DNA from: Solirubrobacter deserti
GTDB taxonomy: Bacteria; Actinomycetota; Thermoleophilia; Solirubrobacterales; Solirubrobacteraceae
Assembly (NCBI RefSeq): GCF_027587175.1
Contig: NZ_JAPCID010000052.1
Coordinates: forward strand, 1-57,219
Reading direction: 5' to 3'
Length of the DNA stretch: 57,219 bases
The notes under the pieces were generated by a model, which worked only from the letters and a program-made list of their open reading frames with translations, did no database searches and was not told the origin of the DNA. The position numbers and the translations under genes were made by a program. Shown piece by piece: positions 23,717 to 28,354 of this stretch (positions are counted from its first letter, which is position 1; the number at the start of each line of letters is the position of its first letter).

Positions 23717-24376
23717 ATGCTCGAGGCGTTGCCGGCCGAACTCGCGCGGCAGTCGGTGACGCACTCGTCCTGGACCGAGAAGCGCTCGGATTCCTATGAG
23801 CGGCTGGCGTTCCTCGGCGATTCGGTGCTCGGCCTGGCGGTCACGACGCACCTGTATCCGCGGCTGCAGCCCGACGCCTACGGCGCCGGCCGCCTGACCA
23901 AGGTGCGCGCGCAGGCGGTGAGCGGCCGTTCGTGCCGGGACGTAGCCGAGCGGCTGGGCATCCCGGAGCGCCTGAAGGCCGCGGCGCCGCCGGAGTTCGC
24001 CGGGCCCGCGACCGAGCAGCTCGCGCGCACCGAGCGGGTGCTGGCGTCGGTGATCGAGGCCGTGATCGGGGCCTGCTACCTGCAGTTCGGCTACGAGCAG
24101 GTGGCCGACGCGGTGGTGGAGGCGTTCCAGCCCGAGATCGAGCGGGCGCTCGCGCATCCGGCCGACTTCAAGAGCGCGCTGCAGGAGCAGCTCGCGCGGC
24201 GCGGGACGGTCGTCGTCTACGAGGTCGCCTCCGAGGAGGGGCCGCCGCACGAGCGGACGTTCGAGGTCGTCGCGGTCGTGGACGGCCAGGAGGTGGCGCG
24301 GGGGAGCGGGCGCTCGAAGAAGGACGCCGAGCAGGCCGCGGCCGAGGCGGCGCTGGAGTCGCTGGGGCCGGGCTGA
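23717..24376 (+). CDS. rnc: Ribonuclease III with atypical active-site residues
   Basis: 219 residues: a RNase III domain (about 1-140) and a C-terminal dsRBD (ADFKSALQEQLARRGTVVVY to GSGRSKKDAEQAAAEAALE). The signature reads YERLAFLGDSVLG, keeping E28 and the catalytic Asp (D35), but Ala stands where ERLEFLGD has its second Glu. In the second metal motif the family's LAD..E is LASVIEA, so the conserved Asp is Ser (S111) while Glu (E114) remains. It may still cleave dsRNA. The start is ATG 23717; an in-frame CTG at 23699 overlaps the acpP stop (CTGA) and is an alternative. It is followed by smc through TGATG. Confidence 0.92.
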   Translation: MLEALPAELARQSVTHSSWTEKRSDSYERLAFLGDSVLGLAVTTHLYPRLQPDAYGAGRLTKVRAQAVSGRSCRDVAERLGIPERLKAAAPPEFAGPATEQLARTERVLASVIEAVIGACYLQFGYEQVADAVVEAFQPEIERALAHPADFKSALQEQLARRGTVVVYEVASEEGPPHERTFEVVAVVDGQEVARGSGRSKKDAEQAAAEAALESLGPG

Positions 24377-27300
24377 TGCACCTCAGCTCGATCACGCTCA
24401 AAGGCTTCAAGTCCTTCCCGGACCGCACGCGGCTGACGTTCGCGCCGGGCGTGTCGGTGATCGTGGGCCCGAACGGGTCCGGCAAGTCCAACATCACGGA
24501 CGCCGTGCTGTGGGCCTTGGGCGAGCAGTCGCCGGTGGCCGTCCGCGGCGCGTCGATGCAGGACGTCATCTTCGCGGGTGCGCACGGGGTCAAGTCCCGC
24601 TCGGAGGCGGAGGTCGAGGTCATCCTCGACAACTCGTCGGGCCGGGTGGACCTGCCCGCGGGCGAGATCGCGATCACCCGGCGGCTGAACCGGGCCGGCG
24701 ACGGTGAGTACCGCATCAACGGGGCCAAGTGCCGGCTCACGGACGTCATCGAGATCCTCTCGGACACGGGCCTGGGCAAGGAGATGCACTCTGTCGTCTC
24801 GCAGGGCCGCGTGGCGGAGATCGTCACGTCCAAGCCCAAGGACCGGCGGATGCTGATCGAGGAGGCCGCGGGCCTCGGCAAGCACCGCAAGCGCCGGCGC
24901 AAGGCGCAGCTCAAGCTCGAGCGCACGCAGGACAATCTGGACCGCGCGCTGGACGTCGAGCGCGAGGCCCGCACGCGGCTCAAGCCCCTCAAGCGCCAGG
25001 CCGAGGCCGCCGAGCTGCACGAGCGCATCGAGCGCCAGAGCGACGAGGCCAAGTGGACGCTGGCGCGCGACAACGCCCGCGGCGCCCGCGCCGGGCTGGT
25101 CGCGGCAGAGACCGCCGTGGCGGAGGCCCGGGCCGCGGCCGCTGCCGCCGAGGAGGAGTTCGCCGCCGTCGGCGCGCGCCGCGCCAAGGCCGAGGAGGCG
25201 CTGTCCTCGCGCGGCAGTCAACGTGAGGCGTTGTCGTCGCGGTTCTACTCCGCCAAGTCCTCCAGCGAGCGCGTCGGGATGCGGCTGGACGCCGCCCAGC
25301 GCCTCATCGGTGAACTCGAAGAGCGCACGGCGCGCCGGTCGGGCGGCATCACCGCGCTGCAGGCCGAGATCGAGGCCGACGTCGGCGACGACGGCGCCGA
25401 AGAGCGCATCGCGGGCCTGCAGGCCGAGCTCGCCGCGCTGGCCGAGGACCACCGCGTGCGGCTCGAGCGTGAGCTCGCCGAGCTGGAAGCCAAGCGCGAG
25501 GCCGCGACCCAGGTGGTGGCGGAGAAGACCGCGCTCGCCGCGACGGCCGCGGCCCGCCGCGCCGAGGGCGAGGCCGCCGCAGAGGCCGCCCGCCGCGCCC
25601 GCCGCGAGCTCGACGTCGCCGCCGAGAAGGCCCGCCGCGAGTCCGCGCGGATCGGCGCCGAGCTGGCCAAGGTCAACCAGTTCCTGCGCGCGAACGCGGG
25701 CGCCCCGGGCGGCGCCAAGGCGCTCGCCGACACGCTCTCCGCGGCCTCGGGCTACGAGCTCGCGCTGTCCGCCGCTTTGGGCCCGCGCCTGCGCGCGGGC
25801 GTCGCGCTCGACCTCGAGGCCGGCGGGAAGCTGCTGTCCAAGGGCGGCAAGGACGGCGCGGCTGCGCTGATCGTGCCGGCCGCGGGGACGGCGCCCGCCG
25901 CCGCGTCCTCGCCGCCCGCCGACGGCGCCGAGCCTCTCGGCGCCCACGTCGTGGCCTCCGGCGACGACCCCTCTCGCCGCCTCGCCGCGGCCATCCTCGA
26001 GGACGTCTGGGTCGTCGACGACGTGGCGGCCGTGCGGCCGGACTTCGCGGGCATCGCGGTCACCAAGGACGGGCGCGTGTGGTCGCCGCGCACGCGCGAG
26101 CTGCGCCAGGTCAGCCCCGGCGGGCACGACCGCGTGCTCAAGGAGCGCAACCGGCGCGACGCGCTGGTCGCCCAGGTCGACGAGGCAGCGAAGGCCGAGC
26201 GGGCCGCACTCAACGCGGTCGAGGCCGCGCAGGTCAAGGTCGCCGAGGCCGACGCCGCGCGCGAGGGCCTCGACCGCGAGGCGCGTGCGGCGGCGCGCGA
26301 ACGCGACGAGGCCGCCGAGGCCGAGCGGCACGCGCGCTGGGTCATCCAGCAGCGGCGTGCGGCGCCCGACGAGGGGCCGAGCGCGGACCGCAAGGCGCAG
26401 GTCGAGTCGCAGATCGCCACGGAGCGTCGCCTGAAGGAGCGTGCCGAGCGCGAGCGGGCCGAGCGGGCACGTCGGCTGGAGCACGAGCAGCGCCGGCTGG
26501 AGCGCGACCGGCAACTCAAGCCCGTCGCGGAGCGGTTCGCGAACGCGCTCAAGCAGGTGCAGGCCGCCGTCGCCAACCGGCTCGAAGCGCTCGAGGCCGA
26601 GCTCAACGCCGACAAGGCCGCGGGCGAGCAGCTGGCGAAGGAGCTCAGGGAGTGCGCGGCGGAGGAGTCACGCGTGCACGCGAAGCTGCGCGAGCGCGGC
26701 GAGGCCGTCACGCGCGGTGAGGTGCAGGCCCAGCGCGCCCGCGACCACGCCGCAGACGCCAACGCCGAGCTCGAGCGGCTCGCCGCCAAGCTCGGCCTGG
26801 AACCGGAGCCGTCCGACACGCCACTCGACGACGGCGAGCGCGCCCACCTGGACAAGACGATCGAGCGCCTGCAGCGCCGGCGCGAGCAGCTCGGCCCGGT
26901 CAACCCGCTCGCGCAGGCGGAGTACAAAGAGGCGCTCGAGCACGTCCAGGAGCTCGAGGCCCAGCGCGAGGACCTCGAGACGGCGATGCGCGAGCTCGCG
27001 CAGCTCATCAAGGACACCGACCGCCGCATCAAGGAGGCGTTCGAGGAGACCTTCGACGCGGCGGCCAAGAACTTCGAGGAGGTCGTCGGTCACCTGTTCC
27101 CGGGCGGCCGCGGCGCGCTGCGGCTCGTGCGCGAGGACTCCGGCCCGCGCCCCGTGCTCGGCGGCGGCGACGACGAGACGCCGGTGCCCGAGCCCGAGGA
27201 GGACGAGGAGGAGAGCACGCCGGAGGACAAGCTCGGCGTCGAGATCGAGATCACGCCCGCGGGCAAGTCCACGAAGCGCCTGACGCTGCTGTCCGGCGGC

Positions 27301-27588
27301 GAGAAGACGATGACCTCGCTCGCGTTCCTGTTCGCGGTGTTCCTCGCGCGCCCGTCGCCGTTCTACATCCTCGACGAGGTCGAGGCCGCGCTCGACGACC
27401 TCAACATCGACCGCTTCCTGCAGGTGCTGCGCGGGTTCAGCGACCGGGCGCAGTTCATCGTGGTCACCCACCAGAAGCGCACGATGGAGGCCGCGGACGC
27501 CCTGTACGGTGTGTCCATGGCCGGCAACGGCGTCTCGAAGGTGATCTCGCGCAAGCTGCCCAAGCCGGCCGAGGAGGTCGCCGCGTGA
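24376..27588 (+). CDS. smc: Chromosome segregation ATPase SMC
   Basis: 1070 residues, somewhat short for an SMC. N-terminal head: LKGFKSFPDRTRLTF and Walker A GPNGSGKSN (about 31-39). Two long Ala/Glu/Arg-rich coiled coils flank a hinge at about residues 440-590 (ALADTLSAASGYELALSAA to FAGIAVTKDGRVW). C-terminal head: signature LSGGEKTMTSLAFLFAVF and Walker B FYILDEVEAALDDLN. SMC with ScpAB compacts and segregates chromosomes. An acidic insert (EPEEDEEESTPEDK) lies in the C-terminal head. The start overlaps the rnc stop (TGATG); the stop overlaps the next gene (GTGA). Confidence 0.96.
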   Translation: MHLSSITLKGFKSFPDRTRLTFAPGVSVIVGPNGSGKSNITDAVLWALGEQSPVAVRGASMQDVIFAGAHGVKSRSEAEVEVILDNSSGRVDLPAGEIAITRRLNRAGDGEYRINGAKCRLTDVIEILSDTGLGKEMHSVVSQGRVAEIVTSKPKDRRMLIEEAAGLGKHRKRRRKAQLKLERTQDNLDRALDVEREARTRLKPLKRQAEAAELHERIERQSDEAKWTLARDNARGARAGLVAAETAVAEARAAAAAAEEEFAAVGARRAKAEEALSSRGSQREALSSRFYSAKSSSERVGMRLDAAQRLIGELEERTARRSGGITALQAEIEADVGDDGAEERIAGLQAELAALAEDHRVRLERELAELEAKREAATQVVAEKTALAATAAARRAEGEAAAEAARRARRELDVAAEKARRESARIGAELAKVNQFLRANAGAPGGAKALADTLSAASGYELALSAALGPRLRAGVALDLEAGGKLLSKGGKDGAAALIVPAAGTAPAAASSPPADGAEPLGAHVVASGDDPSRRLAAAILEDVWVVDDVAAVRPDFAGIAVTKDGRVWSPRTRELRQVSPGGHDRVLKERNRRDALVAQVDEAAKAERAALNAVEAAQVKVAEADAAREGLDREARAAARERDEAAEAERHARWVIQQRRAAPDEGPSADRKAQVESQIATERRLKERAERERAERARRLEHEQRRLERDRQLKPVAERFANALKQVQAAVANRLEALEAELNADKAAGEQLAKELRECAAEESRVHAKLRERGEAVTRGEVQAQRARDHAADANAELERLAAKLGLEPEPSDTPLDDGERAHLDKTIERLQRRREQLGPVNPLAQAEYKEALEHVQELEAQREDLETAMRELAQLIKDTDRRIKEAFEETFDAAAKNFEEVVGHLFPGGRGALRLVREDSGPRPVLGGGDDETPVPEPEEDEEESTPEDKLGVEIEITPAGKSTKRLTLLSGGEKTMTSLAFLFAVFLARPSPFYILDEVEAALDDLNIDRFLQVLRGFSDRAQFIVVTHQKRTMEAADALYGVSMAGNGVSKVISRKLPKPAEEVAA

Positions 27589-28013
27589 CGCACGGCAACG
27601 GCAACGGCGCACAGGCGCAAGCCGTGCTCGAGCCGCGCGGCGTCTACCGCTCCAAGGGCGTCGAGAACTCGACCGGCGTCGTCGGCAGCGCGGGCGTTGC
27701 GAGCTCGGTCGGCGTGATCGGCAGCACCGGCGTGGTCGCGGCGGCCGGCGTGGTCGGCAGCGCGGCCGTGGTGGGCTCGTCCGCGGTCGTCGGCTCCGCG
27801 GCCGTCGCGGGCTCCACGACCGTCGTCGGCAGCGCGGGCGTCGCGCTCTCGGCGGGCATCGTCGGTAGTGCGGGCATCGTCGCCGGCCTCGGGAACGTCG
27901 GCTGCGCGAGCTGCGTCGCGTGCATCGGCTGCGTGAACTGCACGGGCTGCGTCGCGTGCATCGGCTGCAGCGGCATCACGGGCGGCGTCGGTCTGATCGG
28001 CGTGCACGCATGA
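27585..28013 (+). CDS. Hexapeptide-repeat protein with (Cxx)7C cysteine ladder
   Basis: 142 residues, family not recognised. From residue 13 to 138 the sequence is 21 uninterrupted hexapeptides of the form [GA]-[VI]-x-x-S-x, for example GVVGSA, GVIGST, AVVGSS. In the last hexads (GNVGCA, SCVACI, GCVNCT, GCVACI, GCSGIT) Cys replaces positions 2 and 5, giving eight Cys at 107, 110, 113, 116, 119, 122, 125 and 128, exactly every third residue. The pattern suggests a beta-solenoid whose cysteines stack in ladders that could bind metal or clusters or form disulfides. There is no signal peptide. It starts inside the smc stop (GTGA) and ends in an ATGA overlap with the VOC gene. Confidence 0.78.
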   Translation: MTHGNGNGAQAQAVLEPRGVYRSKGVENSTGVVGSAGVASSVGVIGSTGVVAAAGVVGSAAVVGSSAVVGSAAVAGSTTVVGSAGVALSAGIVGSAGIVAGLGNVGCASCVACIGCVNCTGCVACIGCSGITGGVGLIGVHA

Positions 28014-28354
28014 CGGTCCACCGCGTGGTCCCGAACCTGTTCACGGAGGACCCGGCGGCCGCGAGCGCGTTCTACACCGACTTCCTCGGCCTCGACGTCG
28101 GGATGGAAATGCCGGGCATGACCACGTTCGTCGTGCCGGAAGTCCCGTCAGCGCAGCTCTCGATCGGCCACGCCTACGGGCTCGACCAGGCCGTCGTCTC
28201 GATCGGCGTCGACAACGTGGACGAGATCTACGCCCGAGCCCAGCAGCAAGGCCTCGAGATCGTCTACGAGCTCCGCGACGAGCCCTGGGGCGTGCGGCGA
28301 TTCTTCGTCAAAGCTCCCGGCGGCCACGTCATCAACGTGGTTCAGCACGCCTAG
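28010..28354 (+). CDS. VOC (glyoxalase/bleomycin-resistance) family protein
   Basis: 114 residues starting MTVHRVVPNLFTEDPAAASA, the first strand-helix of the VOC fold. DFLGLDVGMEMPGMTTFVV, AVVSIGVDNVDEIYARAQQQ and PGGHVINVVQHA complete a paired beta-alpha-beta-beta-beta unit. Members dimerise and bind metal or small hydrophobic ligands. The substrate is unknown. It starts within the stop of the repeat protein (ATGA), so smc, the repeat protein and this gene form one coupled string. Its stop shares CTAG with the convergent gene. Confidence 0.85.
   Translation: MTVHRVVPNLFTEDPAAASAFYTDFLGLDVGMEMPGMTTFVVPEVPSAQLSIGHAYGLDQAVVSIGVDNVDEIYARAQQQGLEIVYELRDEPWGVRRFFVKAPGGHVINVVQHA

What the first reader, a model, noticed from the sequence alone, without database searches (positions are those of the whole stretch)
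27585..28013. Hexapeptide solenoid ending in a perfect eight-cysteine ladder, coupled to smc
The sequence shows 21 consecutive hexads [GA]-[VI]-x-x-S-x with no indel. In the last hexads, positions 2 and 5 become Cys, giving Cys at 107, 110, 113, 116, 119, 122, 125 and 128. The hexad is related to, but not the same as, the left-handed beta-helix rule, so a solenoid with stacked Cys ladders is plausible: a metal or cluster wire, a zinc sink or a disulfide zipper. GTGA and ATGA overlaps tie it to smc and a VOC gene, so it is unlikely to be random. I recognise no family.
Basis: partly seen in the sequence, partly recalled or inferred. Interest (0 to 1): 0.82.

Follow-up and report, generated by a model that had tools for sequence, protein, structure and literature searches.

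The report
Narrow beta-solenoid with all-cysteine core
A small, unnamed protein found in many actinobacteria, including mycobacteria, is predicted to fold into a thin coiled rod whose last turns are filled entirely with cysteine; it is conserved, but what it does is unknown and it does not seem tied to the chromosome gene it sits next to here.

Summary
It is no artefact: relatives occur in five of six genomes of the genus, across Actinomycetota and in a few MAGs of other phyla. In the mycobacterial genus 88 of 198 genomes carry it, and 11 core cysteines show one substitution in 39 loci. No Pfam or NCBIfam model reaches its cut-off for this protein. Sequence and AlphaFold2 models point to a two-sheet solenoid of 12 residues per turn, like Tenebrio antifreeze protein, rather than a left-handed hexapeptide helix. 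Every third residue points inward: Ser/Val alternation in the repeats, then Cys at every core position for two turns, then a hydrophobic cap. Coupling to smc was seen in the genus only; other clades have other neighbours, often oxidoreductases, and in mycobacteria 40 of 89 loci adjoin one SDR gene. Most likely the thiol core is a structural lock (disulfide or metal) for an uncharged rod; that step is inferred.

The parts
27585..28013 (+). Solenoid gene, 142 aa, GTG start overlapping the smc stop (GTGA), stop overlapping the VOC start (ATGA)
   Evidence: homologues
27639..27902 (+). Repeat part, residues 19-106: hexads whose core positions alternate Ser and Val (core string of residues 28-106: SVSVSVSVAVSVSVSVSVSVSISIGN)
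   Evidence: AF2 strands about every six residues
27903..27968 (+). Cysteine ladder, residues 107-128: eight Cys three apart = all core positions of two 12-residue turns
27969..28010 (+). C-terminal cap, residues 129-142 (SGITGGVGLIGVHA): core positions return to I/G/L/V; in relatives mostly [SV]GLRGAVGx[RV]xVHA-like
24373..27588 (+). smc (start placed by me from the frame after rnc; about 1071 aa); overlapping upstream neighbour in this genus
   Evidence: named by eye; start inferred
28010..28354 (+). VOC/glyoxalase-fold gene, 114 aa, downstream neighbour (Pfam Glyoxalase E 1.5e-12)

Best explanation
The gene encodes one member of an unnamed family of small, probably cytosolic proteins that fold as a narrow two-sheeted beta-solenoid of 12 residues (two hexads) per turn. 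Every third residue points into the core. In the repeat part the core is Val in the strands and Ser at the turns. In the last two turns (up to about three and a half in mycobacteria) all core positions are Cys, so thiols face each other across the turn (i, i+6) and stack between turns (i, i+12). A hydrophobic C-terminal turn closes the end. The most likely working is that the thiol block is a chemical lock: facing cysteines pair as disulfides, or hold a soft metal ion, and fix one end of an otherwise weakly held, uncharged Ala/Gly/Val/Ser rod. Folding or assembly of the rod would then depend on redox state or metal. The rod's flat uncharged faces serve for docking to itself or to partner proteins. 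Shown here: the gene, its conservation, the three-residue core pattern and the near-invariance of Cys. Predicted: the fold. Inferred: cytosolic location, the lock and the docking.
For: Core/outer split: the phases that become Cys hold V/S/T in the repeats of 49 relatives (91% and 87%), the other phases mostly A/V and G/A; the window core reads Ser/Val alternation, then GN, eight C, IGLV. Twelve-residue turn: lag 12 above lag 18 in 49 of 49 members and above lag 6 in 44 of 49; R/K at -19 with D/E at -7 in 18 of 73 rows against 6.0 expected, and 12 is the commonest opposite-charge separation, in rows from Actinomycetota, Chloroflexi, Dormibacterota and Polyangiaceae. AF2: window model pLDDT 76, pTM 0.59, Cys block about 78-82; mycobacterial member pLDDT 85.5, pTM 0.64, Cys block about 89-93. 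1ezg aligned at Z 9.0/2.4 A and Z 8.0/2.5 A over 81 of 82 residues. Cys near-invariance: one substitution in 11 core positions of 39 loci, while core positions further out vary S/C or V/I/M/L. Where the Cys spacing is not 3 it is most often 6 (34 gaps of 6, 4 of 9, 4 of 12).
Against: No coordinates could be measured, so sulfur distances and handedness are unchecked. Foldseek gives no PDB match at E <= 0.001 for either model. In the second model 1ezg ties with phage tailspikes (Z 8.2), and in both models the part aligned to 1ezg ends at residue 100-103, before the Cys ladder. Z of 8 or so may mean only a common arrangement (tool's note). A disulfide lock is odd in a reducing cytosol; no dedicated signal-peptide prediction was run, and a hydropathy scan flagged 3 of 49 N-termini, of which only L100 looks like an anchor. 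Ladder lengths of 7 to 14 do not always allow complete pairing. Opposite-charge separations of -14 and -20 are also frequent (53 and 39 against 60 for 12) and the model does not explain them. Charge and Cys covariation were not corrected for relatedness. The profile searches reward Cys, so Cys-poor relatives may be missed. Collagen models match several members (see membership). No expression evidence was sought.
Confidence: 0.42

Rival explanations
1. Plain packing: Cys is simply the best-fitting core residue of the narrow turn near the C-terminal cap; thiols stay free, with no metal or redox role.
For: Other Cys-every-third proteins occur in phage records and in small actinobacterial genomes, presumably intracellular; a 12-residue turn leaves little core room (inference).
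Against: In the same proteins V/S/T fill the equivalent core positions elsewhere, yet rarely replace Cys in the block.
Confidence: 0.25
2. Soft-metal store or buffer: the thiol-lined core takes up Cu(I) or Zn(II), working like a solenoid counterpart of copper storage proteins (those are recalled, not looked up).
For: Ladders of 7-14 Cys in one predicted core, regular spacing, His near the C-terminus in 36 of 75 rows.
Against: I recognised no recurring metal-homeostasis gene among the neighbours (not searched for specifically); the core may be too narrow.
Confidence: 0.15
3. Redox accessory of neighbouring oxidoreductases (thiol relay or scaffold).
For: Neighbours include SDR, FAD, acyl-CoA dehydrogenase, aldo/keto reductase and desaturase genes by Pfam, and succinate dehydrogenase, PDH E2 with lipB/lipA by eye. 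In mycobacteria 40 of 89 loci adjoin one SDR, all on the same strand, in both gene orders.
Against: The base rate of oxidoreductases was not measured. Other partners are smc, helicase, GNAT, hydrolase, regulator. 48 of 88 solenoid genomes lack the SDR adjacency, and at least 17 of these have the SDR elsewhere.
Confidence: 0.12
4. Ice-binding (antifreeze) protein.
For: 1ezg, Tenebrio AFP, heads the structure comparison of the window model; flat Ala/Val faces form the ice-binding site of springtail AFPs (PMC7033094, passages read).
Against: Thr on both sides of a core residue at 2 of 1726 sites in 49 members; no secretion signal noticed.
Confidence: 0.04
5. Accessory of SMC.
For: Overlapping start codon with the smc stop in five genus genomes.
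Against: Neighbours differ in the other clades examined; genus genome G002 has smc, and no match to this protein.
Confidence: 0.02
6. Collagen-like triple helix.
For: Pfam Collagen matches 28 of 49 members at E <= 1; 2 of 10 members rescanned pass its cut-off (L079 37.8 and L086 30.5 bits vs 27.2); PDB collagen alpha-2(I) E 4.3e-12 with the window protein.
Against: Gly fills 682 of 1372 (50%) of its third positions and Pro occurs once in those stretches of 49 members; the window protein scores 18.2 bits, below the cut-off. I take the matches as composition.
Confidence: 0.02

Closest known systems
Tenebrio molitor antifreeze protein, PDB 1ezg (Pfam PF02420, IPR016133)
   Same: Predicted 12-residue-per-turn solenoid with a Ser row; alignment of 81 of 82 residues at 2.4-2.5 A. 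The 12-residue coil of Tenebrio AFP is stated in PMC7033094 and its internal Ser ladder in PMC3196904 (passages read).
   Different: No Pfam PF02420 match at E <= 1 in 49 members; almost no outward Thr-core-Thr; Cys at every core position in one block instead of two per turn throughout (Tenebrio motif recalled); an insect protein.
Cys-every-third proteins of phages and giant viruses ('Caib/baif family protein', 'insect antifreeze protein', 'TNFR-Cys'), PHROG 15341
   Same: Cys three apart; L128-L130, read as the same kind, have a similar CVGL after the Cys. Structure hits: Mimiviridae ChoanoV1 E 2e-5, Campylobacter virus IBB35 E 3.3e-3 with 3.0 A over 64 columns. PHROG 15341 matches L066 at 5.2e-7 and the window protein at 0.0035.
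   Different: TM-scores are low (0.24-0.32). In those read here the outer residues are often polar or charged, there is no Ala/Gly/Ser/Val repeat part, and the tail differs. I found no study of them.
Left-handed beta-helix hexapeptide proteins (LpxA/LpxD)
   Same: Six-residue repeat of small and aliphatic residues; next after 1ezg for the window model.
   Different: Rule [LIV]-[GAED]-x2-[STAV]-x fits at best 4 of 20 hexads; aligned only at 9.3-9.9 A.
Collagen-like repeat
   Same: HMM matches through frequent Gly/Ala; 2 of 10 rescanned members above the Pfam cut-off.
   Different: Gly at only half of its third positions, Pro practically absent, another third position mostly V/S/T/C.

Membership tests
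Insect antifreeze protein (PF02420, Tenebrio type) | 12-residue-per-turn solenoid | tested here: inconclusive
   Predicted only: 1ezg Z 9.0/2.4 A and Z 8.0/2.5 A; Foldseek not significant
Insect antifreeze protein (PF02420, Tenebrio type) | Match to the Pfam model | tested here: not met
   PF02420 not among the families matched at E <= 1 by any of 49 members
Insect antifreeze protein (PF02420, Tenebrio type) | Outward Thr-x-Thr ice-binding row | tested here: not met
   2 of 1726 core sites in 49 members
Insect antifreeze protein (PF02420, Tenebrio type) | Disulfides across each turn | not testable with these tools
   Coordinates and redox state unavailable
Left-handed beta-helix (hexapeptide) | [LIV]-[GAED]-x2-[STAV]-x repeat | tested here: not met
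   At most 4 of 20 hexads in any register
Left-handed beta-helix (hexapeptide) | Fold with 18 residues per turn | tested here: inconclusive
   LpxD/LpxA rows at Z 5-8 with rmsd above 9 A; lag 12 beats lag 18 in 49 of 49 members
Collagen triple helix | Pfam Collagen above cut-off | tested here: inconclusive
   Window protein 18.2 bits vs 27.2, not met; of ten other members rescanned two pass (L079, L086), eight do not
Collagen triple helix | Unbroken Gly at every third residue | tested here: not met
   682 of 1372 sites in 49 members; 25 of 39 in the window protein
Pentapeptide repeat | Five-residue period | tested here: not met
   Identity 0.09 at lag 5 against 0.44 at lag 6
PHROG 15341 / 'Caib/baif' Cys-ladder proteins | Significant profile and structure match over the Cys block | tested here: inconclusive
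   PHROG E 0.0035 window, 5.2e-7 L066, Cys part only; BFVD E 3.3e-3

The most novel reading that the evidence does not exclude
An intracellular solenoid whose core is a continuous thiol-lined tube that loads a row of soft metal ions (or switches between dithiol and disulfide), so that assembly of an uncharged protein rod is gated by metal or redox state. It would be a common but unrecognised component of mycobacteria and other Actinomycetota, often encoded with oxidoreductases.
Probability: 0.15. Interest if true: 0.85.

Novelty: new variant of a known kind. Interest (0 to 1): 0.6.

Why it matters
A protein family held by 88 of 198 sampled genomes of the mycobacterial genus has no Pfam or NCBIfam model of its own that I could find and no PDB sequence relative of its Cys block. 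If its last turns really have an all-Cys core, it is a natural test of what a dense row of buried thiols does: plain packing, disulfide staple or metal array. It is small enough to express, solve and mutate directly, and the frequent SDR neighbour gives a concrete partner to test.

Tried and rejected
Low-complexity artefact: rejected by relatives with changed codons and a conserved Cys block. Antisense ORF 27644-28021: no Pfam match, and the coding frame has GC3 of 0.95. Collagen-like hits in Pfam, NCBIfam, PHROGs and PDB: taken as composition, although two of ten rescanned members pass the Pfam cut-off. Ice-binding, smc partner and hexapeptide helix: see rivals and membership rows. RiPP precursor (thiocillin model matched by 4 of 49 members, best E 0.036): judged unlikely because the Cys block is conserved across phyla; modifying enzymes were not searched for.

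False or doubtful hits set aside: L022, L024, L025, L026, L028 and the short L027. In the phylum survey 5 of 13 hits (L128-L132) are other Cys-repeat proteins or simple repeats, leaving 8 of 396. The class survey's 22 of 298 include a short fragment (L151) and one with stops inside (L145). Of six viral-contig hits, L114, L115, L117, L118 are collagen-like, simple-repeat or unclear. Plasmid and phage protein searches with a mycobacterial member found nothing, but BLAST masks low complexity.

Papers: nine searches returned no paper on this family: beta-solenoid + cysteine + Tenebrio molitor antifreeze + bacterial; cysteine ladder + solenoid; insect antifreeze protein + phage + cysteine-rich; Solirubrobacter + repeat protein + cysteine; hexapeptide repeat + cysteine-rich + actinobacteria + beta-helix (64); PF02420 (76); 12-residue + beta-solenoid + cysteine + bacteria + AlphaFold; Tenebrio molitor + antifreeze + 12-residue + disulfide + inward; caib baif family protein. 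Two papers were read in passages only, the others seen as listings. The library holds open-licence papers only.

Full report
Observation. The ORF at 27585-28013 is real and as described. It runs from the smc stop (GTGA) to the VOC start (ATGA). The literal hexad rule fits 11 of 20 hexads; a relaxed one fits 13 in a row. The eight cysteines sit exactly three apart. Residue shuffles rarely give even four such cysteines (105 of 200,000). Codon-position GC is that of a gene. After residue 27 there is no D, E, K or R.

Homologues. A protein search of 61 genomes (own and 60 relatives) gave matches in 20; 13 of these with the window form alignment A1, after six false or short hits were set aside. Seven Cys columns and Gly130 are invariant in those 14 sequences. 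A scan of the genome-contig collection found 113 relatives, 80 kept, mainly Actinomycetota: Mycolicibacterium, Mycobacterium, Pseudonocardia, Actinomycetospora, Geodermatophilus, Williamsia and Solirubrobacterales, with a Chloroflexi, two Dormibacterota and a Polyangiaceae MAG. Five of six genomes of the genus have one match each. A profile of the last 42 residues matched 22 of 298 genomes of the class and 13 of 396 of the phylum (8 after removing other Cys-repeat proteins). In the mycobacterial genus it matched 88 of 198 genomes, 89 loci.

Constraint. In ten pairs of five genus sequences the last 41 residues have dN 0.03-0.24 and dS 0.14-0.57; nine pairs have dN below dS. The repeat part is looser (dN 0.12-0.41, dS 0.31-0.86). 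Forty mycobacterial loci were fetched from the weaker part (ranks 43-89) of the profile list. In 39 of them 11 core positions carry one non-Cys residue in all (L173); the fortieth, L163, loses the family sequence upstream of its last cysteines. Core positions further out vary between Ser and Cys or among V, I, M, L. The profile itself favours Cys, so this is not an unbiased sample.

Architecture. Across 49 members the phases that become Cys are filled in the repeats by V, S or T (91% and 87%); the others mostly by A, V and G. In the window protein the core alternates Ser and Val, then GN, eight C, IGLV. Self-identity at lag 12 exceeds lag 18 in 49 of 49 members and lag 6 in 44 of 49. Opposite charges in the Cys block are most often 12 apart. 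The pair -19/-7 co-occurs 18 times against 6.0 expected among 73 rows, in several phyla. Separations -14 and -20 are also frequent and are not explained by the model. Relatedness was not corrected for.

Structure prediction. The window protein gives pLDDT 76 (five models 65-76), pTM 0.59, no residue at 90 or above. A Mycolicibacterium member (L043) gives pLDDT 85.5 and pTM 0.64, with three-residue strands every six residues and its best confidence in the Cys block. Foldseek finds no significant PDB match for either. The finer aligner puts Tenebrio AFP 1ezg first for the window model (Z 9.0, 2.4 A, 81 of 82 residues) and among the top three for the second (Z 8.0, 2.5 A), tied there with tailspikes. 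The part aligned to 1ezg ends at residue 100-103, so the Cys ladder itself has no solved counterpart here. Among viral models the best are a Mimiviridae 'TNFR-Cys' protein and a Campylobacter phage 'Caib/baif' protein, with low TM-scores. I could not inspect coordinates.

Context. In the genus the gene lies between smc and a VOC gene: the overlap with smc is seen in the window and L010-L013; VOC follows in the window and, by a pattern, in three of those four. Genome G002 has smc; DNA similarity to the window stops at the smc end and resumes beyond the VOC gene, and no solenoid match was found in it. A VOC gene elsewhere in G002 was not sought. Elsewhere the neighbours change. By eye: a PDH E2-type gene overlapping by four bases in six Solirubrobacterales loci, with lipB-like and lipA-like genes downstream in five each; a succinate dehydrogenase flavoprotein gene upstream in six mycobacterial loci; a WhiB-like gene upstream in four; one SDR in many mycobacteria. 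Upstream neighbours of 20 of the 80 loci were scanned with Pfam: they include SDR, FAD, acyl-CoA dehydrogenase, aldo/keto reductase and desaturase families, but also helicase, GNAT, hydrolase and a regulator; one had no match. My ORF caller is simple and some calls are wrong. In the mycobacterial genus 40 of 89 solenoid loci adjoin the same SDR, all on the same strand, 22 after it and 18 before it; 48 of 88 solenoid genomes lack this adjacency. The SDR itself occurs in 151 of 198 genomes. Adjacency kept through a change of order suggests a link, in that genus, with this enzyme.

Function. Near-constant Cys, in a solenoid that elsewhere has V, S or T at the equivalent positions, suggests that thiol chemistry matters. 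Disulfide, metal and free-thiol packing cannot be separated from sequence. I commit to a structural thiol lock at 0.42, with the fold itself considerably more likely than the chemistry.

Known or new. Pfam and NCBIfam have no model above cut-off for the window protein. Collagen models match many members and pass the Pfam cut-off in two of ten rescanned; with Gly at half of its third positions and almost no Pro I read that as composition. The same holds for the PDB collagen hits; the A2 profile has no convincing PDB match (best E 0.017) and the Cys-block profile none. The fold type is known, and Cys-every-third proteins are annotated in phages, without study that my searches found. I therefore rate it a new variant of a known kind.

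Noticed in passing
L066, L075, L081, L085, L087 and L047, L058, L059, L067, L077, L078: One SDR family (73-82% identical between the two sets) adjoins the solenoid gene downstream in the first set of mycobacteria and upstream in the second.
   Followed up: yes
L063, L082, L083, L090, L096, L107: In Solirubrobacterales the solenoid gene overlaps a PDH E2-type acyltransferase gene by four bases, with lipB-like and lipA-like genes downstream in five loci each (named by eye).
   Followed up: partly
L128, L129, L130: Three small (1.8 Mb) genomes of another actinobacterial genus encode a different Cys-rich protein ending CVGLNGARFHILNREYSEQ-YYEKL, of a kind I recall from CPR bacteria.
   Followed up: partly
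L097, L100, L101: Chloroflexi and Dormibacterota members begin with a hydrophobic stretch that looks like a membrane anchor; only L100 passed the hydropathy threshold (L101 was not in that set).
   Followed up: partly
L157 (G002): The genus genome without the gene has a short open frame after smc containing GIIGSA, perhaps a remnant of the repeat.
   Followed up: no
L070, L073, L099, L103: A WhiB-like gene (named by eye) lies 46-104 bases upstream of the solenoid gene on the same strand.
   Followed up: no
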